Source: a virus
Virus record (IMG/VR): IMGVR_UViG_3300035698_018280
Location: 99,888 to 163,887 of that record
Reading direction: 5' to 3' (one strand)
Length of the DNA: 64,000 nucleotides
Both the position numbers and the translations under genes were made by a program. A model generated the notes under the pieces. The model saw only the letters and a list, made by a program, of their open reading frames with translations, made no database searches and was not told the origin of the DNA. Position 1 is the stretch's first letter. Each line of letters starts with the position of its first letter. Below, piece after piece: positions 36,035 through 64,000 of this stretch.

Positions 36035-38358
36035 TACTTATTCAGCTTATCAAGATTTATATCTACATATTTTGAAATTACCAATGCCATCCCATCAAGA
36101 TGAGAAACAGATGTATAACGCATAAGTTTACTCTTGACATCTAGTATTTCAGCAATCTGGCTAGCAGCCTTAACGAGTATGTTGTAACGGGCCATAGCAA
36201 GCGAGTGACGCTTCTCATAATCCTCAATGTTTGTCCAGCCAGTTCCTTCTTCTGCATCTATATCTCGCATTTGACCCAAATAGTCAGCCATGCGTTTTCT
36301 GAAATCTCCATACGTCCTCAACTGCTTATATAAAGCAGCTAGAACTTCAGGATCGCTCAATGTATCTACTTCATCTACAGTAAATTCAGGTTTTTTGATA
36401 AGTTTTACAGGCTTTTTTGTTTTCTTGTTAATTTTATTCTCAACATCAATAAGACCTTCGTTGATCATCTCTTGTTGTTTATTATAACCTCTAGAAGACT
36501 TATCGTACCTACTCTTAAGCATCTCTCTTCTCTTTTCAGGAGGAACTTTAGAAGAAAGCAAATTGCCTATGGTTCTTGATTCAGGATGGGGTTTTAGCAT
36601 ATTGAAGAAGCCTAGAGCAGTCTCTTTATCGACATCACCAGCGCGCATCATTTCCAAAACTTCAGGTCCAACTATATCAAGAAGTTCCTGCGTTTTCATA
36701 TGCAAGTTTTGAGCCTGCAGCCTTCTGTACGATGGATCTGTTTCTAGCTTCTCTCTGTCTAATGGTTCTTTGTTCTTTCCTAGATATTTATTTGTTTTTT
36801 CTTTATCGTTACCAAACTCATCGTCAAGACGAAGTATCATCCTGTCTAGCATAGAATAATTATTTGAAACAAGGGCTCCGAAATCAAGATCCATCGCGCC
36901 AGTTTCTTGATTTGGCCTATATATTGAACTTCCAGAAGGAGTTACATCTTTGATGTATCCAAGATTTTTAATCGTTTTATCAATATCTTTTGATGACATT
37001 TTGCCGGAAGCAGCATTCTCCATAGTCAGTTCAAGAGCATTTCTCATAGAGGCTGTAAACTCATCAATAAAGAAACTATGCATCTTCATCTTTTCTTGTT
37101 TTGCTCTTTCTCGATCTGTTCTTGGTTCCATATCAACAACCTTACCCTGAAGAACTTCCCTAATCTTATCTCCTAGGGTTTCAATTTTTTCAGGTATGAC
37201 GAGAAGACCTTTTCTCATAACATCGTATTCTTCTTTAGAAATGCCTTCTCCTGCACCCTCGTCGAATTCATTGATACGGCCTGCAAGACCGGCGTCATCT
37301 GCAAAATCTATATTCTCGCCTTCATTGCCGACCATGCCGCCGCCGCGATTAGTATTAATGGCCTGATCAAATTTAGGATTAAGAGCCTTTCTAACGTAGT
37401 CGAATATATCTGGATCCTGAGACATCATACGACCTGTGAAATCAGATTCGAGTTCCGATACTATATCTGGGTTCTGAGCTATCCAACGAGCGCGTTCAGA
37501 CGCCCCTCTTCCCTGAACGTCAATTCCTAGTTCTTCAAGAGCAGCAGCGCCGCCCGTTTTAAATGATGCGTAGTAGCCTATGATGGGATCGTAACTTTGC
37601 CCCTCAGTATCACCGGCGCTTCGAAAGCCTTCTGGGATGCGATTAAACACGGAGTCAAGACGCTCGATCTGAGAGGCTCCTCGAAAGCCTTCTTCAGATA
37701 AGCTTTCAAAATACCCATCTCTTCCTTCTGCTTGCGGACCAAGAAATGATTGATAAAACATTTCGGCATATGGTTGCTGAAGGTTGACTGCATCGCCAAC
37801 TGGCAACTCAGTAGTTTCTGTTGCCGCCGCAGGATGAACAAGCAGTTCAGAAAGTATCTGGTAAAATGTCTCTCTATTGTTTTCGTTATTCTTAATTTCT
37901 GGCGGAAGAGCTTCAAATTCAGGATACTCAGTGTATCCTGCAGCCATCTGTTGAAGCTGTTCATAAGGAAGATCAGGCTGTTCTGCTGGCTCTACTGAAG
38001 TTGGAGCTTGTAACTCTGAATGAAATCTCTTCATAGCCTCAGACCAAAGATCTGGCATATCTCTCGCCCATTCTGGCGGTTGAATAATTTGCTGCATTAT
38101 GGCAAGGTCCATACCCGGCTCATACAAATTTTGAATATGTCGCACTAGCTTCATGATCCTAGCTTCGCTGCCAGCATCGTCCATTACAGGAGCAGTCTCA
38201 GGCTTTGGGGCGATTATGGGCTCAGGCATCTGTTGAGGCTGAAGCCTGAGCGGCTGAGGTGTAGGCGGGCCAACAACTGTCGGCTGTAGCTGCGGCAAGG
38301 CGCTCTTCCTAGTAAGGCGAGACGTTCTTTCAATGATTGCTAATAGCTTTTTCAGCAT
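36034..38358 (-). CDS. Large hypothetical virion-region protein (774 aa)
   Basis: ATG 38358 has a strong AGGAGTTAT site. Residues about 20-60 are Pro/Gln-rich (VVGPPTPQPLRLQPQQMPEP), then mostly helical and charged sequence with many Glu/Lys/Met residues. No membrane segment, Cys cluster or catalytic motif was found. It is one of three proteins here with a Pro/Gln-rich terminal tail (another is the 577-residue protein), a feature sometimes seen in internal head proteins. A structural or internal virion role is inferred from size and place only. Confidence 0.6.
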   Translation of the reverse strand: MLKKLLAIIERTSRLTRKSALPQLQPTVVGPPTPQPLRLQPQQMPEPIIAPKPETAPVMDDAGSEARIMKLVRHIQNLYEPGMDLAIMQQIIQPPEWARDMPDLWSEAMKRFHSELQAPTSVEPAEQPDLPYEQLQQMAAGYTEYPEFEALPPEIKNNENNRETFYQILSELLVHPAAATETTELPVGDAVNLQQPYAEMFYQSFLGPQAEGRDGYFESLSEEGFRGASQIERLDSVFNRIPEGFRSAGDTEGQSYDPIIGYYASFKTGGAAALEELGIDVQGRGASERARWIAQNPDIVSELESDFTGRMMSQDPDIFDYVRKALNPKFDQAINTNRGGGMVGNEGENIDFADDAGLAGRINEFDEGAGEGISKEEYDVMRKGLLVIPEKIETLGDKIREVLQGKVVDMEPRTDRERAKQEKMKMHSFFIDEFTASMRNALELTMENAASGKMSSKDIDKTIKNLGYIKDVTPSGSSIYRPNQETGAMDLDFGALVSNNYSMLDRMILRLDDEFGNDKEKTNKYLGKNKEPLDREKLETDPSYRRLQAQNLHMKTQELLDIVGPEVLEMMRAGDVDKETALGFFNMLKPHPESRTIGNLLSSKVPPEKRREMLKSRYDKSSRGYNKQQEMINEGLIDVENKINKKTKKPVKLIKKPEFTVDEVDTLSDPEVLAALYKQLRTYGDFRKRMADYLGQMRDIDAEEGTGWTNIEDYEKRHSLAMARYNILVKAASQIAEILDVKSKLMRYTSVSHLDGMALVISKYVDINLDKLNK

Positions 38359-38438: not shown

Positions 38439-39306
38439 ATACTCGCTTTTCGGCTTTTTTACAAGATTCCTCGCTGATATCGCAGGCAAGAAATCTGCAA
38501 CCCAGTTTTTTAGCAGCAACGATTGTCGTACCAGATCCCACAAATGGGTCAAGAACAATTCCGTCTTTTGGGCAGCCTCCCATAATAGGGATGCTTGCTA
38601 AATCTTCCGGATATGGAGCCTTATGTCCTGTTTTGCCATGGTGATCTGAATCAAGCTCCCAAACCGCTCTTCGTTCTTTTTTGTCAATCTCCGCAAAAAT
38701 ATCAGTCCCATTGTCTTCTACAATCCACTTAACCTGTTCAATATCAAAATCATATCTCGGAGATTGCGTAAATAAGAATACAGGTTCAAAATCTATCGTA
38801 AACCTATTTTTGGCTGCTGTTGGTTGAACAATTCTTTTTTTCCAAATAATAAGGTTACGGCAATGCCAATCGCCATCATCAATCATCTTGATCGCTAAAC
38901 GGTAAGGAATCATAAGAAGAGATCTTCGAGGATATGTCTTATCATATTTAGTTGTTTTGAGACGATGTTTACCTATATTAGGAGCATCATTATTGTCGTG
39001 CGCGAAATATCCACCTGAGTTCTCGTTATAACAATCGCCTACATTAATCCAAAGCGTACCTTTCTTTTTAAGTACACGTTTGACTTCTATAAAAAAGTTA
39101 AACATACGATCGATATACTGAGGCATTGTCTCTTCTAATCCGTACTGTCCGCTGACGCCATAATCTCTCTGTTGCCAATACGGAGGAGAAGTCACAACTA
39201 TGTCAACCGAATCATTTGGTAATTTGCGCAAAAACTCTATAGCATCTCCACAAACTATTTGATCGATAGCATCATCAATATTTTGCATGTCTTCTAATAG
39301 AAGCAT
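38422..39306 (-). CDS. Site-specific DNA methyltransferase, beta class (N4-cytosine or N6-adenine), 294 aa
   Basis: The catalytic motif TSPPYW is at residues 39-44, and the SAM-binding motif LDPFVGSGTT follows at 252-261. That order, catalytic first, is the beta class. TSPPYW is most often found in N4-cytosine enzymes, but the target base cannot be fixed by sequence. The product has no restriction partner in the window, so it is a solitary phage methylase that probably hides phage DNA from host restriction or marks it for regulation. It lies directly downstream of PhoH with a weak ribosome-binding site. An internal ATG at 39288 is an alternative start. Confidence 0.9.
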   Translation of the reverse strand: MLLLEDMQNIDDAIDQIVCGDAIEFLRKLPNDSVDIVVTSPPYWQQRDYGVSGQYGLEETMPQYIDRMFNFFIEVKRVLKKKGTLWINVGDCYNENSGGYFAHDNNDAPNIGKHRLKTTKYDKTYPRRSLLMIPYRLAIKMIDDGDWHCRNLIIWKKRIVQPTAAKNRFTIDFEPVFLFTQSPRYDFDIEQVKWIVEDNGTDIFAEIDKKERRAVWELDSDHHGKTGHKAPYPEDLASIPIMGGCPKDGIVLDPFVGSGTTIVAAKKLGCRFLACDISEESCKKAEKRVSSLST

Positions 39307-53542: not shown

Positions 53543-54103
53543 TTAGAGTTCGAGCTTGAATCGAGCGAACGATCCCAAGCTAAGGCTCTGATCAACAGAA
53601 CCGCTTCCTACGCTAGGAACGCCACTTGGATAGTTCTTCGGACCCTCAAGCAAACGACCAACTACTCTTGATGAGCCAGCATCCTGCTCATCAAGAAGAC
53701 CTGCAGCATTGCAGAAAAGATTACGACCGACAGTTGCGTTGAATCCAACAGCATACTGATCAGTCCAAAACTCGCCACCGGAGTGGTAAACAGTCATCGT
53801 ACCGGATCCTGAAGTCTCGTTAAAGAAGTCAGAAACACGGTTGGAAGTCGAACGAGTGACGCCTGCGCCGCTGATCACAAGATCAGACGCATATGGTGTG
53901 TACCCTGAAGCGTTTGCCAACGAGTCTCCAGCAATGCCAAGTGCATCGGTAGCGGCTGCTGCGCCGTTTGCGATGGCAACAAAGCCATTGGAGTCAAGTG
54001 TAACAAACATACCCATCTTGATTTCGCCGCTGACAGAAATGTCATAATCGGGATCAACTGAGTAGAACGAGGGGACAACGTGGTAAACAGGAATAAGTGC
54101 CAT
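53543..54103 (-). CDS. Capsid decoration-like protein (186 aa)
   Basis: A small beta protein between the protease/scaffold and the capsid gene, where many phages keep the head decoration protein. It starts MALIPVYHVVPSFYS and has GMFVTLDSNGFVAIANG and then GAAAATDALGIAGDS, a layout like the DUF2190 or decoration group. ATG 54103 follows TAGGAGAATT. It would bind the outside of the mature shell and stabilise it. The call is mainly by place and fold type. Confidence 0.65.
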   Translation of the reverse strand: MALIPVYHVVPSFYSVDPDYDISVSGEIKMGMFVTLDSNGFVAIANGAAAATDALGIAGDSLANASGYTPYASDLVISGAGVTRSTSNRVSDFFNETSGSGTMTVYHSGGEFWTDQYAVGFNATVGRNLFCNAAGLLDEQDAGSSRVVGRLLEGPKNYPSGVPSVGSGSVDQSLSLGSFARFKLEL

Positions 54104-54126
54104 AGTTAATTCTCCTAAACTATATT

Positions 54127-57100
54127 TTAGTGCCTGTGCTTACGAAGTTGCGCATCTTCGCTATCATCTGCGAGGCGATTTCGCTGGTCCAAACTAAACA
54201 TCTGCTGTAGCTGACTTTGTAGTTCGGTTGCTGGATCGCGCTCGTTGCTAGAAGCATTGATAACGAGTGGGGTTTGCGCACCCTGTGCTACGGTGTTGAG
54301 CCCTTTCCTAGTAGCCTCGCTAAAGATACTCTTCTCTAAGTCAGAAATCTGTTCAACCTGGTATCGTTCAAGTTCTGAAGACTTGACGAACAAGTCTTCT
54401 GCCTGAATGAGACCAGCCTGCAACATTTTGCCTGCTAGAGTTTGAGCAGCTTTTTTGCGTGCTACAAGGGACTCCTCATCGCCACTAGCGATGACCGTGC
54501 CTTTATCTTTCTCCTGTTTCTCAGGAGCAAATCTTTCATTCTTATCATATTTCGGGTTCTGTCCGCCGCCTGCGGGGAACTCGGGATGATGTTCTGGGCT
54601 CTTAGGAACGTCGCCAATCGACTCTTCCTCATGACCCATGAAACTTGCGTTGCCTTGTTCAGGAACATCAGGTCCGTCTTCGCCGTCGCGAGGGGTAATA
54701 GTCGAGCCCTCTGGCGTATCTGGGTGATCCTTGTTGTCTTGAACTGGTTTGATATCCTCGTCATCTTCGTGCGGTGCTGGGGGAGCAAGCTTCTTCTCTT
54801 CAGCAGTACGAACGATTGACTCTACAAGGTTATCAACCATGTCGGATGTAGTTATGCTCTGATGAGCATTGGCCGTAGCCTTTGATGAACCAGCGCCGTC
54901 TTCGCCGCCGGTATGCTGATCACCCTTCTCAGCGGTATAGCCTTGATCGGACTCATGCCCCATCTCGCCGCCGCCGTTAGGAACGTCAATAGATTCTTTG
55001 CCTATAGTTGCGCCAGTTCCAGCGCAAGGAACATCAGGATCTTCAAGAGCTAGTTTTTCTTCATGCCCCATCTGCGATTTTGCAGTATCAGATGTTGGCT
55101 GAATATCAGAATCATCTTGAACATTCTTCTGAACAAGATTACTCTGAGCTTCCTTACTCAAGGTTGAGAACATGCCATCTAGGTCAAGACTAATCTTACC
55201 AGTTGGCGTAATACGCCCTCTCTTAAGGTTGTTGCCCAAATCAGAAGCCTCTCGCATGATTAATTCCTCTTCAGAATCCGCTTCTACAGTATTTGAATTT
55301 TGCGAAGCATTTTCCTTCTTATTTTCCTGACTTTCTGCAAAGATTGGAGCATCATGCTTCTTATGTTCTCTATGCTTGTCATGATTATGCTCTGTTTCAT
55401 CGCCGGCGTCCGAGTCGTCATCGATGTTGATCTCGCCGCCAATATCATCAACTGCATCTACTGCAGTATCAAGAACATCGCCAGCCGCATCGCCAAGCTC
55501 GTCGCCAAGCTCTCCTCCGAGGTCGCCGCCAAGCTCAATCTCAACTTCGCCGCCGTCGTCGCCGAGACCCATGTCATCGCCAGCCATTGGATCGCCTTCT
55601 AGACCCATTTCATCGCCAATAGCGACATCAAGAGCTTGGCTAACCTGTTCTAGAACATCAATAGGAAGTTCAACTGAAACAAATCCAGCCTCGCCCGCAG
55701 AGTCATCAAATGGACTTATATCCTCATCAAAAATGCTTCCGTCGTCATCGAAACCATCGTCAAGACCAGTATCAAGACCCCCGTCATCTCCTCCGAATGG
55801 ATCGTTGCCGTCTTCGGCTCCTACATCCAACTCATCAGAGAACAGATCAACTGCTTGAGCAAATATCTGCTTCATACCTTCGCATACAAGCGAAGAGTCT
55901 TCGGCGGAGAAACCTGCTCGAATATGATCTTCAAGGCAATCAATGCATCCGTCTCGCTCGGCCCAAAGACCAGCAACCTTGATAGCAAGGTTATTACTGT
56001 AGACGCCAGCATTCTTAAGACTGTTGCAAACGCAATCAGCCAAATTGCTACCGTGACATGGACCGCTGAGAGCAATCGCATCATCGCCAAAGCGACGAGC
56101 CAGCTTTTCTCTGCAAGATTCTGTTGGGAACTTGTCTCCAGGACCGAAAGCATAAATTTCTTTGAACGCTTCAGTAACAGACGCACTCTTAGATGCAGTC
56201 TTAACTCTCTTGAAGAGACCGTTATCATTCATAGCAAGAATCAGCTTGCCTCGATCCTTACGACTCAGGGCCATAAATTTATTGAGATCAAGGCCATTAT
56301 TATCTAGTGATTTAGCAAAGAGCTTGCGAACTCTGCTGCAGGATGGACATGGTTCGCTAAAGCGAGGAGCCCATTCCCAACGAGCAAAAACAGCCTTCTT
56401 ATCATTTTGAGCGCTTCTTACAAGGTATCGCTGACCGCTATCATGGCAAAGGAACTCACTAGCTCCATCATTAGTCTTGCCAACATAACGAGTATCAGTT
56501 CCGCCGCTGTAAGGGCTTACGCTACCAAGCTGAATATTTGCTTCGGACATCTTCTTCAAAGCAAATTCAGTCAAACGAGTTTCAGCAGCAACGGGGACGC
56601 TCTCTTCAAGGCCTTCGCCTTCAGGTAGAGCAAAGCCTTCGCCTTCTTCTCCAGCTTCGCCGCCGAGCATTTCATCATCCATGCCCATTGGTCCCATATC
56701 CTCGCCGCCCTGATCATCATTCAAGCCAGACCATTTTGTTACTTCAAGAGCAACCTTGATGAGGAATTCGGAACCGCAGTTCGAACATTTTGCTTTACCA
56801 GAAACGACATCAACGTCATCAGAGGTACAAACGGGGCAATGAGAACCAGGAGGCTTAGGAAGAAGATCTTCATCAAAACCGCCGTCCATACCATCGCCAG
56901 GTCCGCCATCATCGAATGATTGAACAGGGCCAGCATCCATACCAGGAGCAGGTGGCAGAGAGGCTCCGCCGCCTCCGCCATCGCCTAAGTCTGTTGGCAT
57001 CTGACCGCCCATCATCTGTGCTTCTCTAATCATTTGCTGACGATTGCTAGAACGTGCTTCTTTTTCTTCAGAATGAAGAATTGCATCAGTATCTTTGTCA

Positions 57101-59982
57101 TCATCTTTGTCATCATCTTTATCTTTATCTTTATCTTTATCTTTATCGTCAGAATCGTCATCAGATTTACCGAATGGCTTGGCCTTGTTGTCTCCAAAGT
57201 TACCAATATTAGCTGCTTTGAAGTTGGAAATTTCTTTTTCAGTAGCGGCCTCTGTGTCCTTTAGAACCGCTTCGAATGTTCCTTGCTCAGGATCAATTTC
57301 AATAGAATAAAGAATCGCATCGCTATCTACATGAGTCTGTGCGAAAGTAAAAATCTTCTTAGTGATCTCAGCATGACTAGCTTCCTTCGTAGTTCCGGCC
57401 TCTTCAAGAGAACCGCAAACCTTTGTAAGAGCTTCATCGCTGAGGAACTTGTTTAGTGCATTTGAGAAATCGTCATTAACGTTTTCTTGCGATGCTGTCT
57501 TTGTCTCAGATTGCTTGATTGCCAAACGAGCACTTCGCTCAGCCCTGGCGAAGGCAGTCTTGTCAGAAACGATACGACGAACCGTATCAAGAAGCTTATC
57601 TGCATTCAAATCTGTTATGTTATCAGCCATAGACGAAAGAAGGCCATCAATCTTATCGAAACCGCTAGCTCTTCGCTCAGCAACTCGTTCGAAGTAATTA
57701 CGACGCGCTCTTTCTGCTGATCTAGCCTCGATCTTACGAGGAGCAGCATTAATAAGAGTTAGACGAGCAGCCTTCATTTGAGAATGAGGATTCGCAGAGA
57801 TGGCGTTTACTGCGTTAGAAACATCTACTGGCGATAGTCCATAATTAGAGATCGCATTAGAAACAGAAGAGGTTGCTGCCTTAATGAGGGACATAGCATC
57901 ATCTTGCGATGCGCCCTTCCAACGAGCAGTCTGATCGCCATGCGGCATAGTTGCTCCTTGCTCATCAAGCTGTCCCTGCGTAACAACGCCAGGATATTCC
58001 CAACGGTGGTTGTCTCTTAAATTAAGCAATTGAGCCTGTCCAATCTCCTCTGTCCAGTCATCTGGTAGGACAGCATCAACTGTTCGACTCATTTCATCCC
58101 ATTGCTTCTCGGTAATAACTTCTGGGAAGCTCTTCCAACGAGCAAGATAACCATTGTTAATCTCATCAAGCTGGGCTTGAGTAATAACATCATAGGAACC
58201 GCTTCGAGTCTGCGGGCTATCAGTCGTTACATCATTATGACGGTCTGAGCCGCCAAGTTGTTCATTGCCTTCGGTGACTGTTTCATAAAAACCGCCATCC
58301 CAACGCTTTGTATATTCAGGAAGGGTAGCTTTGTCAAGCTGCTTCTGAGTAATGACTTCGTTTTGATCTTCAGAAACGCCTGTACCTGCAGCCGTTTTCT
58401 GACTCTCATTCTTATTACTGTTACTACCATCTGTTTTCATGGCAAGAATCCTCCGAGCAGCTTCAGCAGGCTGTTCCGCAATTAAAGTTCTCAATTCATT
58501 GTCCAAAGCCTCAACAGCAACCATTCTTACTAGTTGATCGCCTTTGAATTCCGCGACGTGCGATTCACCATTCTCGTTTTGAGCAATGATAATTTTACTA
58601 TCGCCATTTTGAGCCGAATAAGTTTCGTCTGACTTGAACACGGATTCTCTCCTGGAAGCTAAATGTTGACGATCGGTGTCTACGCCGCTATGTAATCGGC
58701 ATAGATCTTCCTTCATTTTCTCTGCAACCTTTAGAAATTCCTTCTCAGAATTTGAAAAAGTCGGCTTTGTTACTGTTGCAATGCCATCTCCTGCAGGAGA
58801 AGTTGATATGCCGCTAGGCATTCCGCCTCCCATTTGCTGCTGTCCACCCTGCATTGCGTTTGGATCTGAAACCTGTTCTGCTCCGCCTTCTGTAGGGGAA
58901 GCTTGAGCATCGTTTCCGAAAATTACTTCTGCATCTGGCGGCGATTGGAGTTGAGCGTATCCCATCTCAACAAGTTCATCGGTTGTTCCCTGAAGGGAGG
59001 CCATTTGTTCAACAATATCAGAAACGTACTCCATCGATACCATTTGTTTTTGAGCCATCATTGATCGAGTAACGCCTTCCATGAGGGTCATAGCCTCATT
59101 TAGAGCGTTTACTTCTTTCAAACCTGAACTCTTCTCAATCTTCCCGCTAGAAATGGCATCAGTAATAACTGAAGCTGCCTTACGAAGTTTTTCTATACTT
59201 TCGCTTGATGTTTTCTCAATAGCAGGTACATTTAAAACTTCGCATACAAGACAATTATGACAAGCAGGGTTTACTACAAAGCTATCTTCAATAAATTTGA
59301 TATCATAGTTCCACTCGAATGTCTGCGCCTCTTTATGCTCAATATCATTAGACTCGCCCTGCTTGCATCTACAAACGGGACAATTTTCGCTAGGAGTGCC
59401 AGAACTCTTATGAAAATTGCACTTATGAGAGCCGCTAAACTTCTTTCCCTTACGTTCTTTGATATGACTGCAGAACTCGTCAGCTACCGAAGCCTTGTTA
59501 TGACAGACCGAACAAACCGAGTAGCCGACCTGAGCGCCCATCGAAGTTCCAATGATATAACCTTCTTCAATACCTCTGGCTAATTGAGGATATGCATCTC
59601 TATCAACCATATTGATAACATAGATACCCTGCTCGTCATCGTCCCACCATGAATGAGCGACCTTGCCTCTAGCTTTTTCAATATCATCATTCTGATGATT
59701 TACGAAAACAGGAACGCCAATAAACGTTTCAGCAGCCTTTTTTAGTTCTTTAGCAGAAAAGGCATCGCCGTTATCATTAACTTCAGCAGCCTTGATAGCG
59801 AATGCCTTAACAAACAAATGATCCGGATGCTCATCAACTGCCGCTTCAAGATCGAAGCCGCCTAAATCAGTATCGATACTTTTATTAAGTCCTGCAGTTT
59901 TAAGATACTGCCATCCACCGTCCTTGGGGACGTGCAAGACTTCGGCCCTCATAGAACCAGATGCTCTTTTTGTAAAAGCCAT
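54127..59982 (-). CDS. Prohead protease with giant zinc-bearing scaffold-like tail (1951 aa)
   Basis: The N-terminus (residues about 55-155) has the S78/HK97-type prohead protease pattern: VFVNHQNDD with His96, GKVAHSWWDDDEQGIYVINM, and GTSMGAQVGYS with Ser147. Right after it lies a Cys/His cluster (C157, C160, C171, H173, H186, C188, H191, C201, C204, C206, C241, C244, C247). Downstream are VIT-x-x-Q-L-D repeats, helical and coiled parts, a KD-repeat, a zinc ribbon (HCPVCTSDD...CSNCGSE) near 1020 and further Cys pairs (SEPCPSC, DCVC, DGCIDC) near 1220-1370. The rest is very acidic and ends with EDAQLRKHRH. Protease plus scaffold fusions exist in phages, but this length is exceptional. No separate scaffold gene was seen. 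Confidence 0.8.
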   Translation of the reverse strand: MAFTKRASGSMRAEVLHVPKDGGWQYLKTAGLNKSIDTDLGGFDLEAAVDEHPDHLFVKAFAIKAAEVNDNGDAFSAKELKKAAETFIGVPVFVNHQNDDIEKARGKVAHSWWDDDEQGIYVINMVDRDAYPQLARGIEEGYIIGTSMGAQVGYSVCSVCHNKASVADEFCSHIKERKGKKFSGSHKCNFHKSSGTPSENCPVCRCKQGESNDIEHKEAQTFEWNYDIKFIEDSFVVNPACHNCLVCEVLNVPAIEKTSSESIEKLRKAASVITDAISSGKIEKSSGLKEVNALNEAMTLMEGVTRSMMAQKQMVSMEYVSDIVEQMASLQGTTDELVEMGYAQLQSPPDAEVIFGNDAQASPTEGGAEQVSDPNAMQGGQQQMGGGMPSGISTSPAGDGIATVTKPTFSNSEKEFLKVAEKMKEDLCRLHSGVDTDRQHLASRRESVFKSDETYSAQNGDSKIIIAQNENGESHVAEFKGDQLVRMVAVEALDNELRTLIAEQPAEAARRILAMKTDGSNSNKNESQKTAAGTGVSEDQNEVITQKQLDKATLPEYTKRWDGGFYETVTEGNEQLGGSDRHNDVTTDSPQTRSGSYDVITQAQLDEINNGYLARWKSFPEVITEKQWDEMSRTVDAVLPDDWTEEIGQAQLLNLRDNHRWEYPGVVTQGQLDEQGATMPHGDQTARWKGASQDDAMSLIKAATSSVSNAISNYGLSPVDVSNAVNAISANPHSQMKAARLTLINAAPRKIEARSAERARRNYFERVAERRASGFDKIDGLLSSMADNITDLNADKLLDTVRRIVSDKTAFARAERSARLAIKQSETKTASQENVNDDFSNALNKFLSDEALTKVCGSLEEAGTTKEASHAEITKKIFTFAQTHVDSDAILYSIEIDPEQGTFEAVLKDTEAATEKEISNFKAANIGNFGDNKAKPFGKSDDDSDDKDKDKDKDKDDDKDDDKDTDAILHSEEKEARSSNRQQMIREAQMMGGQMPTDLGDGGGGGASLPPAPGMDAGPVQSFDDGGPGDGMDGGFDEDLLPKPPGSHCPVCTSDDVDVVSGKAKCSNCGSEFLIKVALEVTKWSGLNDDQGGEDMGPMGMDDEMLGGEAGEEGEGFALPEGEGLEESVPVAAETRLTEFALKKMSEANIQLGSVSPYSGGTDTRYVGKTNDGASEFLCHDSGQRYLVRSAQNDKKAVFARWEWAPRFSEPCPSCSRVRKLFAKSLDNNGLDLNKFMALSRKDRGKLILAMNDNGLFKRVKTASKSASVTEAFKEIYAFGPGDKFPTESCREKLARRFGDDAIALSGPCHGSNLADCVCNSLKNAGVYSNNLAIKVAGLWAERDGCIDCLEDHIRAGFSAEDSSLVCEGMKQIFAQAVDLFSDELDVGAEDGNDPFGGDDGGLDTGLDDGFDDDGSIFDEDISPFDDSAGEAGFVSVELPIDVLEQVSQALDVAIGDEMGLEGDPMAGDDMGLGDDGGEVEIELGGDLGGELGDELGDAAGDVLDTAVDAVDDIGGEINIDDDSDAGDETEHNHDKHREHKKHDAPIFAESQENKKENASQNSNTVEADSEEELIMREASDLGNNLKRGRITPTGKISLDLDGMFSTLSKEAQSNLVQKNVQDDSDIQPTSDTAKSQMGHEEKLALEDPDVPCAGTGATIGKESIDVPNGGGEMGHESDQGYTAEKGDQHTGGEDGAGSSKATANAHQSITTSDMVDNLVESIVRTAEEKKLAPPAPHEDDEDIKPVQDNKDHPDTPEGSTITPRDGEDGPDVPEQGNASFMGHEEESIGDVPKSPEHHPEFPAGGGQNPKYDKNERFAPEKQEKDKGTVIASGDEESLVARKKAAQTLAGKMLQAGLIQAEDLFVKSSELERYQVEQISDLEKSIFSEATRKGLNTVAQGAQTPLVINASSNERDPATELQSQLQQMFSLDQRNRLADDSEDAQLRKHRH
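57115..57147. repeat. (ATCTTT)5.5 microsatellite in protease/scaffold gene
   Basis: Five and a half perfect copies of ATCTTT, encoding a Lys-Asp dipeptide run, with ATCTTTGTCATC-type repeats beside it. Changes in copy number would stay in frame. Confidence 0.85.
57915..58365 (-). repeat. Protein-level VIT-x-x-QLD repeat block
   Basis: At least four to five copies of a V/I-T-x-x-Q-L/W-D-E unit, each followed 6 to 20 residues later by R-W, lie in the protease/scaffold gene: VITQKQLDK, VITQAQLDE, VITEKQWDE, EIGQAQLLN and VVTQGQLDE. The units are about 25 to 35 residues apart and diverged at DNA level. Confidence 0.75.
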
Positions 59983-61791: not shown

Positions 61792-62235
61792 TTATGCCTT
61801 AACGTGCTTTGGAATATCAACATTTACTAATTGCTCTTTGGTATACTGTTGCTGCCCTTTGGGGAAAATTATTGCCCACTTATCATTAGCATGAGCCAAC
61901 GCAGCTTTCATATTCGGAAAATACTCGCCATAGGGACTGTAAGATTTCTTTTTACCGCGCTCTACTTCGGGCGGTAACTTCTTTACCCCTGCAAAAAACA
62001 TCTTACCAACATCTTTTTGTATAGAAGGACCAACAACGACATAGTAATCAGAGTTAGTTGTTACATCATGTCCTTCCCAACGGTAATAAGCGCCAGGACC
62101 AACCTGCTGATCAAATCTCTTCTTCAAAGGAGCAGAACGCTCTTCATATCTTTCTTCCCACTTGATACCTCTCTCCTTGATAGGAGTTCTTCCGCCATGA
62201 CGTGCGACTTTGGTTAGATCAAAAATGCGTTCCAT
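61792..62235 (-). CDS. Hypothetical protein downstream of portal (147 aa)
   Basis: The start ATG 62235 directly follows the portal stop TAA, with an AGAGGG site in the portal coding end, so the two are translated together. The protein is basic and compact (HGGRTPIKERGIKWEERYEE near residue 13; DYYVVVGPSIQKDVGKMFF near 63; KAALAHANDKWAIIFPKG near 108). No motif recognised. A portal- or head-associated factor is possible. Confidence 0.55.
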   Translation of the reverse strand: MERIFDLTKVARHGGRTPIKERGIKWEERYEERSAPLKKRFDQQVGPGAYYRWEGHDVTTNSDYYVVVGPSIQKDVGKMFFAGVKKLPPEVERGKKKSYSPYGEYFPNMKAALAHANDKWAIIFPKGQQQYTKEQLVNVDIPKHVKA

Positions 62236-64000
62236 TTAGCCCTCTTTGATATTATCAACTATTTTGGGAATAGAGATAGATGTAAATCCGTTTGCAATAT
62301 CGTTTGCTGATGTTTCGTTACAATCGTATACAATTTTTGTCTTGACATTTCCTTGAACCGAAGCTGTCTTCATTTTTTTAGAATGCTTAACGATGTCTTG
62401 AATATTCTGAATCAAAACGCTTTCAACCTGATCAATGTTTTCATTCAATGCCGATTCAGAGAATCTAAGAACAGACCATCCCATATGAGCAAGGGTCATA
62501 TCTCGTTCTTGGTCACTTTTCTTATCCTCATCCTCAGAATGCCATTTTTCTCCATCTGCTTCAATATCTAAACGAAGTTCTGGAATAGCAAAATCCATAA
62601 CATACGGTTGCTGAGATCCTGGTTTGAACTGCTTAAATTGAGCATAAGTGGGATACGGAAGCCTCATAGACTTTATCATTCTCCACAATTTAGCTTCTGG
62701 GCCAGTTAATTGAACCGTTACAGATTGCATAGCTGCCATCTCTTTATCAGATGGTCCTTCCGCAGCCTTCGGAGCCTTGCCCTTCTTATAAACTTTGCCA
62801 GGAGCCTCTGGTTCTGCTCCTGCTGCCGCTCCCATACCGCCGCCCATCGGTGCTCCGCCTGGCATAGCTGCCCCAGGAGGGGCTCCCATTCCGCCTCCCA
62901 TTGGGTCTGCTCCCCCCATGCCTCCGCCCATCGGATCACCCATACCACCAGCGGCTCCTCCGCCAGGCGCACCCATGCCGCCCATACCTCCAGGTGCTCC
63001 GCCCATGCCGCCAGCCATTGGGTCGCCGCCGCCCATCAACTGTCCATCCTGCATAGCCATAGCTTGTTCTTCTCTAATTCTTTCTATCTCTTGGTCATAG
63101 TTAAGATCAAACTGCTCAAGCAAAGTACGATCAGAAATTTTTCCGTTCTGATTCAACTGAATATACATCTGCTGCAAGTTCGTATTGTCTCGCAGTCGCA
63201 TATCCTCCCATTTCAGTCGAGGATACAGATATACAACTTCTCCGCTTTCTTTTGTCTCAGATTCATCTATAAAGCCCTGCATTTGAGCAATAGGCAAAAA
63301 GATTCTCTTCTCAACCCATTCCTTTAGCTCGCTACGCCAGGTTTCAAGACGAACAATAAGCGACTCAGCGCCAATCTGGCCGCTGGCATAGCTTGTACCT
63401 TCACCATTCAAAAGCGCCTGGTTGAGCATAAGGCCGTCAAGGATTTCCTTGCCGATATACTCAAGTTCAGCATTGATGTTATGGATTTTACCAGTATTCC
63501 CTTGAACAGTAATGCGACCGTTACGGCGGGTTATGATCCACTTGTTAGGAACTTTTACGCAATAAACTTTACCATTATATTCTCCGCGAGAAATATGTTG
63601 TTTGCGAACTTCAAACGGAGTTTCTTTGCTATGCTCTGACCAATAAATTCTATAAAGGTCTCTGCATCTGTCATTCTTCGCTTTTTCAATCGAAGTCGAA
63701 GAGAAATAGCCAAGCTTCAACGCTAATTCTGAAAAAGCATCAGACAAACTATTCGAAGTTGTTGTGTATTTGTATCTAGGATGCAAAGTATCTTGTCTAA
63801 CATAACCGTCGCCAGCCATCATTGCATTATAAACAATCTGCAATTTATTTTTAGGTAAATCCCTAATCCATCTAGGAATCTTTTTCTCATTAGACCTTGA
63901 TCCAAATTCTTCTGCCAAATATCGAGCTATTTTAACATTATTAATTGTAAAATTACAGAATGTATCATTATATCTGTTGTCTTCTGTTTCTGAAAAATTA
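62236..64000 (-). CDS. Portal protein with intein and DUF559 nuclease-like domain, 5' end outside window
   Basis: The frame is open to base 64000 with no stop; a TTG at 63918 is not a credible start. From 64000 to 63496 lies the C-terminal part of an intein. The extein resumes at Thr (63493-63495) with GKIHNINAELEYIG, DGLMLNQALLNGEGTSYASG and WRSELKEWVEKRIFLPIAQ, typical of the portal stem and clip region. Next is a Gly/Met/Pro-rich linker (62815-63039) and a DUF559/Vsr-type restriction-fold domain (62374-62706; YVMDFAIPELRLDIEADGE, then ERDMTLAHMGWSVLRFSE). Portals form the DNA gate of the head. A nuclease-like domain on the end is very unusual and could be structural only. Confidence 0.8.
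   Translation of the reverse strand, partial: NFSETEDNRYNDTFCNFTINNVKIARYLAEEFGSRSNEKKIPRWIRDLPKNKLQIVYNAMMAGDGYVRQDTLHPRYKYTTTSNSLSDAFSELALKLGYFSSTSIEKAKNDRCRDLYRIYWSEHSKETPFEVRKQHISRGEYNGKVYCVKVPNKWIITRRNGRITVQGNTGKIHNINAELEYIGKEILDGLMLNQALLNGEGTSYASGQIGAESLIVRLETWRSELKEWVEKRIFLPIAQMQGFIDESETKESGEVVYLYPRLKWEDMRLRDNTNLQQMYIQLNQNGKISDRTLLEQFDLNYDQEIERIREEQAMAMQDGQLMGGGDPMAGGMGGAPGGMGGMGAPGGGAAGGMGDPMGGGMGGADPMGGGMGAPPGAAMPGGAPMGGGMGAAAGAEPEAPGKVYKKGKAPKAAEGPSDKEMAAMQSVTVQLTGPEAKLWRMIKSMRLPYPTYAQFKQFKPGSQQPYVMDFAIPELRLDIEADGEKWHSEDEDKKSDQERDMTLAHMGWSVLRFSESALNENIDQVESVLIQNIQDIVKHSKKMKTASVQGNVKTKIVYDCNETSANDIANGFTSISIPKIVDNIKEG
63496..64000 (-). other. Intein C-terminal part with LAGLIDADG endonuclease (partial)
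   Basis: In-frame inside the portal gene. A LAGLIDADG-type helix with acidic end, LQIVYNAMMAGDGYV, is followed by YTTTSNSLSDAFSELALKLGY, as in dodecapeptide homing endonucleases. The intein ends with VYCVKVPNKWIITRRNGRITVQGN followed by Thr, the usual block F and G order. The last Asn is at 63496-63498. The penultimate residue is Gly, not the common His. The N-terminal splice block is outside the window. Confidence 0.85.

What the first reader, a model, noticed from the sequence alone, without database searches (positions are those of the whole stretch)
62374..62706. DUF559/Vsr-type nuclease-like domain fused to the portal C-terminus
After a Gly/Met-rich linker the portal carries a restriction-endonuclease-like domain with D in MDFAI, E-x-D in IEADGE and the RD...GW-x-V-L-R-F pattern. 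A DNA-cutting domain at the DNA gate could trim or sense packaged DNA, or act on host DNA at ejection. I know of no standard portal with this architecture.
Basis: partly seen in the sequence, partly recalled or inferred. Interest (0 to 1): 0.75.

Follow-up and report, generated by a model that had tools for sequence, protein, structure and literature searches.

The report
Phage portal with built-in DNA nuclease
In a large family of giant bacterial viruses, every copy of the ring protein through which the viral DNA enters and leaves the head carries its own DNA-cutting domain on a flexible leash; this arrangement is found in no isolated phage in the collection searched, and it raises the question of what viruses cut at that gate.

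Summary
The window's portal ORF ends in a complete DUF559/Vsr-like endonuclease domain (PF04480, E 6e-14, 52.2 bits against a cut-off of 20.6), joined in one open frame to the portal body by a ~118-aa Gly/Met/Pro linker. It is neither an assembly error nor a one-off. In 72 of 72 single-frame, 3'-complete portals of this family in IMG/VR the domain is in the same ORF, and these portals form one clade. Eleven phage-G-type portals and four other relatives outside that clade lack it. The catalytic D, E and H are invariant in 61 of 61 distinct proteins, and dN/dS is about 0.01-0.1. AlphaFold gives a restriction-endonuclease fold (pLDDT 91); the best solved match is the I-Bth0305I catalytic domain. 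In at least six contigs an intein sits inside the nuclease active-site motif (E|C-D-G). The C-terminal end of a portal normally faces the capsid lumen, so the likely picture is about 12 leashed, active nucleases at the inner mouth of the portal. What they cut is inferred: most likely DNA being packaged. The nuclease does not replace the terminase nuclease, which has intact motifs. A K-x-A-[S/Q] motif, a probable prohead-protease site, follows the nuclease but is not conserved in the leash. No INPHARED isolate has this portal.

The parts
62239..63495 (-). portal protein, C-terminal extein part (portal body, linker, DUF559 nuclease, tail); the N-terminal half lies beyond the contig end
   Evidence: phrog_16240 portal E 6.6e-13 on residues 154-250; 65% identity to the complete portal L002 over query 532-1078
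63496..63999 (-). C-terminal part of a LAGLIDADG intein inside the portal (ITVQGN|TGKIHN)
   Evidence: LAGLIDADG_3 E 5.8e-4, 20.5 bits, just under its cut-off of 22.5; absent from intein-free relatives that read YEWYGA-TGRIHN (L003)
62710..63063 (-). ~118-aa Gly/Met/Pro-rich flexible linker ending in a conserved basic motif
   Evidence: median linker length 119 aa in 46 relatives, Gly 28%, Met 11%, Pro 10%
62767..62796 (-). conserved basic peptide KVYKKGKAPK next to the nuclease
   Evidence: [KR][KR]G[KR] in 36 of 46 linkers against 0.45 expected in shuffles
62377..62709 (-). DUF559/Vsr-like PD-(D/E)XK-fold endonuclease domain
   Evidence: PF04480 E 6.4e-14; AlphaFold pLDDT 90.9; Foldseek best 3r3p and 3hrl
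62593..62595 (-). predicted catalytic Asp (MDFAI)
   Evidence: D in 61 of 61 distinct proteins
62539..62562 (-). predicted active-site motif E-x-D-G-x-x-W-H
   Evidence: E and H in 61 of 61; second Asp D in 59, E in 2; intein insertion site E|C-D-G in at least 6 other contigs
62500..62514 (-). conserved D-x-x-R-D motif
   Evidence: invariant in 61 proteins apart from intein-derived rows
62359..62370 (-). K-T-A-S in the tail just after the nuclease; probable prohead-protease site
   Evidence: [KR]-x-[AS]-[ASQN] in 53 of 56 tails against 14.8 +/- 3.2 in shuffles; motif enriched in capsid-module proteins
54127..59982 (-). prohead protease fused to a long acidic scaffold-like region (1951 aa); source of the presumed processing activity
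   Evidence: phrog_18299 head maturation protease E 1.3e-11; 14 [KR]-x-A-[SQ] sites

Best explanation
SHOWN: a DUF559/Vsr-type endonuclease domain entered the C-terminus of the portal gene once, in the ancestor of a large clade of big tailed phages, between a low-complexity linker and a short tail. It has been kept in every member seen, with its active-site residues intact and under strong purifying selection. FOLLOWS FROM GENERAL PORTAL KNOWLEDGE: portals are 12-mers whose C-terminal crown end faces the capsid lumen. About 12 nuclease domains should therefore hang on ~120-residue leashes around the inner mouth of the DNA channel. INFERRED: they are active, metal-dependent DNA nicking or cutting enzymes that work on DNA at that mouth while the head is being filled. 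They could clear abnormal structures or ends, or make limited nicks, and probably act only after head maturation, when the C-terminal tail is clipped at K-x-A|S by the prohead protease. The nuclease does not replace the terminase cut.
For: Same-ORF fusion in 72 of 72 single-frame, 3'-complete portals. Monophyly of domain-bearing portals, support 0.83, or 0.95 without the deep member L180. Portal and domain distances co-vary: Mantel r 0.57 against at most 0.26 in 2000 permutations. Invariant D/E/H/D/R/D. dN/dS 0.01-0.10 wherever dS could be computed. Restriction-endonuclease fold. Inteins inside the active-site motif. Exactly one DUF559 per record, always the portal, 13 of 13. Portal_Mu over its cut-off on L011 residues 248-426, and a weak SPP1_portal match of L025 residues 425-484 to the C-terminal end of that model (358-413 of 416) just before the linker. 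Crown and wing face DNA inside the head in T4 (PMC9958956). A portal-associated nuclease that helps packaging is known in T4: endonuclease VII binds gp20 and frees stalled branched DNA (PMC10893049). Known resolvases are mostly missing: RuvC 0 of 13, RusA 0 of 13, Endo VII 1 of 13 over cut-off. Tail site in 53 of 56, no enriched site in the leash.
Against: No activity is measured. A lumen-facing nuclease is badly placed to debranch DNA stalled outside the channel. A nuclease among packaged DNA must be held in check by something not identified here. The 12-mer and the lumen position are not shown for this portal: the full-length AlphaFold model is poor and a profile comparison with T4 gp20 found nothing. 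Records are metagenomic and may be incomplete, so the missing resolvases are weak evidence.
Confidence: 0.45

Rival explanations
1. Head-borne effector: the nuclease is packaged via the portal, cut free by the prohead protease and ejected with the DNA to attack host DNA or mobile elements, as capsid-carried MuF toxins or T4 internal proteins are proposed or known to be delivered.
For: K-x-A-[S/Q] motifs are enriched in capsid proteins (z 5-15); one lies after the domain in nearly all members, and in one subclade K-T-A-Q or K-V-A-Q also lies in the leash. Large phages with many ejected head proteins exist (PMC10052503 abstract).
Against: The leash motif occurs in 9 of 46 linkers against 5.2 +/- 2.2 in shuffles, so release is not a conserved feature. 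The same conserved domain is kept everywhere, unlike the swapped toxin domains of MuF proteins.
Confidence: 0.17
2. Head-internal restriction: the nuclease cuts unmodified DNA (host, satellite or rival phage) that enters the head, while the phage's own DNA is protected by its methylases.
For: The window's phage has at least 4 N6/N4 DNA methylase genes, and its relatives G001-G004 have several each. The fold is shared with the modification-dependent PvuRts1I.
Against: Several contigs with the domain show none of the three methylase families searched, though they may be fragments. PvuRts1I cuts modified, not unmodified, DNA.
Confidence: 0.12
3. Domesticated or still mobile homing-type nuclease (EDxHD family) that rides in the portal gene and cuts portal genes lacking it.
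For: The closest solved fold is the I-Bth0305I homing endonuclease catalytic domain, and these portal genes are intein hotspots.
Against: Present in 100% of one clade and in none of the sister portals, single acquisition, no decay, strong purifying selection, no attached DNA-binding modules. Mobile endonucleases are normally sporadic and decaying (general knowledge).
Confidence: 0.12
4. Catalysis is irrelevant: the domain only binds DNA and anchors the genome end, or serves portal assembly.
For: A basic peptide next to it is conserved. The SPP1 portal-bound protein gp7, located in the head and with no toxin domain, is a precedent for a portal-bound DNA-binding protein (PMC5576092).
Against: The full predicted catalytic set is invariant in 61 of 61; a pure binding domain would be expected to lose it.
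Confidence: 0.1

Closest known systems
DUF559 / PF04480 (Vsr-like, restriction-endonuclease fold)
   Same: Fold, motif order D...E-x-D-G...H...D-x-x-R-D...G-W...R, score above the Pfam cut-off
   Different: Known phage DUF559 proteins found here are separate enzymes or helicase fusions; here it is part of the portal
I-Bth0305I, EDxHD homing endonuclease (PDB 3r3p)
   Same: Best Foldseek match (E 7e-5, TM 0.68/0.76) and sequence-profile match E 2.6e-7
   Different: No DNA-targeting modules and no sporadic distribution; fixed in a structural protein
Portals of Bacillus phage G and actinophage I3/Phabba/Stormageddon
   Same: Homologous portal body; Gly/Pro-rich C-terminal extension, with a K-x-A-S-type motif in phage G, I3 and Stormageddon
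   Different: No nuclease domain
T4 endonuclease VII bound to portal gp20
   Same: Nuclease physically associated with the portal; role in packaging branched DNA (PMC10893049)
   Different: Separate protein of another fold (PF02945), not fused
MuF-domain polymorphic toxins of temperate phages
   Same: Head-associated protein carrying a C-terminal enzymatic domain, often a nuclease (PMC5576092)
   Different: Different carrier protein, variable toxin domain; here one conserved domain on the portal

Membership tests
DUF559 (PF04480) | Profile score above Pfam's cut-off | tested here: met
   52.2 bits against 20.6; also over cut-off in 13 of 13 records
DUF559 (PF04480) | Restriction-endonuclease fold with conserved D, E-x-D, H | tested here: met
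   AlphaFold pLDDT 90.9, matches 3hrl and 3r3p; residues invariant
DUF559 (PF04480) | DNA cleavage activity | not testable with these tools
   needs biochemistry
Vsr mismatch endonuclease (PF03852) | Profile score above Pfam's cut-off | tested here: not met
   13.2 bits against 27
Phage portal protein | Sequence homology to portal families | tested here: met
   phrog_16240 E 9e-38; Portal_Mu 33.1 bits against 23.9 on L011
Phage portal protein | Ring of 12 subunits, crown inside the head | not testable with these tools
   full-length model poor; inferred from the family
EDxHD homing endonuclease | Catalytic core fold | tested here: met
   3r3p best match
EDxHD homing endonuclease | Attached DNA-targeting modules and sporadic, mobile distribution | tested here: not met
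   no other DNA-binding Pfam domain in intein-free portals; present in a whole clade, absent from sisters
T4 endonuclease VII type resolvase (PF02945) | Endonuclease_7 profile match | tested here: not met
   no match in the window's record; the portal matches DUF559 only
MuF polymorphic toxin | MuF domain with exchangeable C-terminal toxin | tested here: not met
   no MuF domain reported; one constant domain in 61 proteins

The most novel reading that the evidence does not exclude
A restriction system inside the virus head: portal-leashed nucleases destroy DNA that lacks the phage's own methylation as it enters the capsid, keeping host DNA and satellite parasites out of infectious particles.
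Probability: 0.12. Interest if true: 0.9.

Novelty: new variant of a known kind. Interest (0 to 1): 0.72.

Why it matters
The portal is among the most conserved machines of tailed phages and is normally a passive DNA channel. A whole clade of very large phages has kept an apparently intact nuclease on it, with every active-site residue preserved. That implies a step in DNA packaging, head maturation or genome protection that model phages do not show. It can be tested directly by active-site mutation, and it identifies a portal type that could be used to study what happens to DNA at the inner portal mouth.

Tried and rejected
Sequencing error or chance ORF: rejected by the 72 same-frame relatives. 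Substitute for a dead terminase nuclease: TerL of the relative G002 keeps its nuclease D motifs (HLDPA, YDHFNS, DDIVDA, read), and the first two are also seen in G001 TerL. Conserved release by cleavage in the leash: not supported. Full-length portal AlphaFold model: too poor to use (pLDDT 48). T4 gp20 profile comparison: no signal. PDB search with the portal body: only weak (YonE E 0.02). Host identification through GTDB genomes: no hits. Single-sequence scan with the window domain alone: no relatives, solved by using an alignment. Pfam terminase families: no hits, terminase found with PHROGs instead.

Full report
WHAT IS THERE. The window lies at the end of a 163,887-base virus record. The ORF at 62239-63999 (-) is open at the contig end. 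Its first ~168 residues are the C-terminal part of a LAGLIDADG intein, ending ITVQGN|TGKIHN. The portal body follows, then a ~118-aa Gly/Met/Pro linker with a basic peptide KVYKKGKAPK, then the nuclease domain, then a ~46-aa tail. The portal N-half is not on this contig. PF04480 DUF559 matches at E 6.4e-14, well above its cut-off.

NOT AN ARTEFACT. A profile of four nuclease domains found 35 loci in IMG/VR. In nearly all, the domain is the C-terminus of a portal ORF after a Gly-rich linker. Starting instead from the portal (80 loci), every portal that is in one frame and complete at its 3' end has the domain in the same ORF: 72 of 72. Seven loci end before the domain could be reached, and one (L094) is broken over several frames. 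Contigs reach 548 kb, so many are jumbo phages. Thirteen of the larger records each contain exactly one DUF559 match at this threshold, and it is always in the portal (L094's record carries it in a broken frame).

ORIGIN. Portals with and without the domain separate cleanly. All domain-bearing portals form one clade (support 0.83, or 0.95 without the deep member L180). Eleven phage-G-type portals and those of I3, Phabba, Stormageddon and Tunturi_5 lie outside and lack it. Domain and portal-body distances correlate (Mantel r 0.57, maximum of 2000 permutations 0.26), so the two have travelled together since one fusion. Several relatives without the nuclease (phage G, I3, Stormageddon) already have a Gly/Pro-rich extension followed by a K-x-A-S-type motif, which suggests that the nuclease was inserted between an existing leash and an existing tail. 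That last step is inference.

IS IT A WORKING NUCLEASE. Catalytic-type residues are invariant in 61 distinct proteins: D of DFA, E of E-x-D-G, H of W-H, and D-x-x-R-D. The second Asp is Glu in two. Domain dN/dS is 0.012-0.105 in the pairs where dS was not saturated, close to the portal body. AlphaFold gives the alpha-beta-beta-beta-alpha-beta-alpha core at pLDDT 91. Solved matches are I-Bth0305I (3r3p), the Neisseria protein 3hrl and PvuRts1I. In L083, L091, L105, L111, L151 and L158 an intein is inserted exactly between the catalytic Glu and C-D-G. Inteins persist at conserved sites of essential proteins (general knowledge), so this points to strong selection on the active site. Cleavage itself is not shown.

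WHERE IT SITS. The L011 portal body matches Portal_Mu above its cut-off. Residues 425-484 of L025, just before the linker, weakly match the C-terminal end of the SPP1 portal model. In known portals that end is the crown, inside the capsid and touching DNA (T4: PMC9958956). About 12 nuclease domains should therefore hang on ~120-residue leashes at the inner mouth of the channel. The full-length model was too poor to test this.

PROCESSING. A K-x-A-[S/Q] motif is strongly enriched in the capsid-module proteins of the window and of the relatives tested, phage G among them (z about 5-15), while the reversed motif is not. One stretch beyond the capsid genes of a relative (L181) shows a weaker enrichment (z 3.9) and another (L182) none. 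In portals it is conserved near the N-terminus (58 of 60) and just after the nuclease (53 of 56 with the broad form, 14.8 expected), but not in the leash (9 of 46, 5.2 expected). A prohead protease fused to a giant scaffold-like region is encoded nearby (54127-59982). I read the motif as its cleavage site. The head protease would then trim the portal's two ends and leave the nuclease attached. This is a prediction, not a measured site.

WHAT IT MAY DO. The terminase of the relative G002 keeps its own nuclease motifs and G001 keeps at least the first two, so the portal nuclease is an addition. RuvC and RusA were not found in 13 records and endonuclease VII in one, but records may be incomplete. 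T4 shows that a nuclease on the portal can serve packaging (PMC10893049). I therefore favour packaging-linked DNA processing at the lumen side (0.45), ahead of a released effector (0.17), head-internal restriction (0.12), a homing remnant (0.12) or a non-catalytic anchor (0.10). The main weakness of the favoured view is that a lumen nuclease cannot reach branches stalled outside, so its substrate would have to be ends, nicks, mismatches or misloaded DNA inside.

NOVELTY. Neither the annotated phage records searched nor the open-access papers searched contain a portal with this domain. Both domains are known; the fusion, its complete retention in a clade and its siting are new. I class it as a new variant of a known kind.

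Noticed in passing
window 63496-63999: C-terminal part of a LAGLIDADG intein in the portal; portals of this clade are intein hotspots, with up to three inteins in one gene (L004/L040)
   Followed up: partly
L083, L091, L105, L111, L151, L158 (portal ORFs): Intein inserted inside the nuclease active-site motif, between Glu and Cys-Asp-Gly
   Followed up: partly
window 54127-59982: Prohead protease domain fused to a ~1,700-aa acidic, low-complexity scaffold-like region rich in K-x-A-[S/Q]; the motif is a candidate cleavage signature shared with phage G
   Followed up: partly
window 38446-39207; record positions 53883-54581, 54945-55610, 36319-37167: At least four N6/N4 DNA methyltransferases in one phage record, several more in relatives G001-G004
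   Followed up: no
window 61792-62235: Conserved ~147-aa protein of no known family directly downstream of the portal in this window and in L002, L003 and L004
   Followed up: no
L044, L045, L077 and other portal tails: Many portals of the clade end in a conserved peptide LG-x-x-(Y/L)-IG(T/N) after the presumed protease site; possibly a scaffold-binding tail that is removed
   Followed up: no
L181:9169-12189 (-) and L183:3540-6554 (+): Terminase large subunits of relatives; that of L181 clearly carries an intein near its start and the L183 ORF is of the same length; no Pfam terminase family recognised them
   Followed up: partly
L094: Portal gene spread over several frames in a 187-kb contig, with the nuclease in a separate frame: broken assembly or further intervening elements
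   Followed up: no
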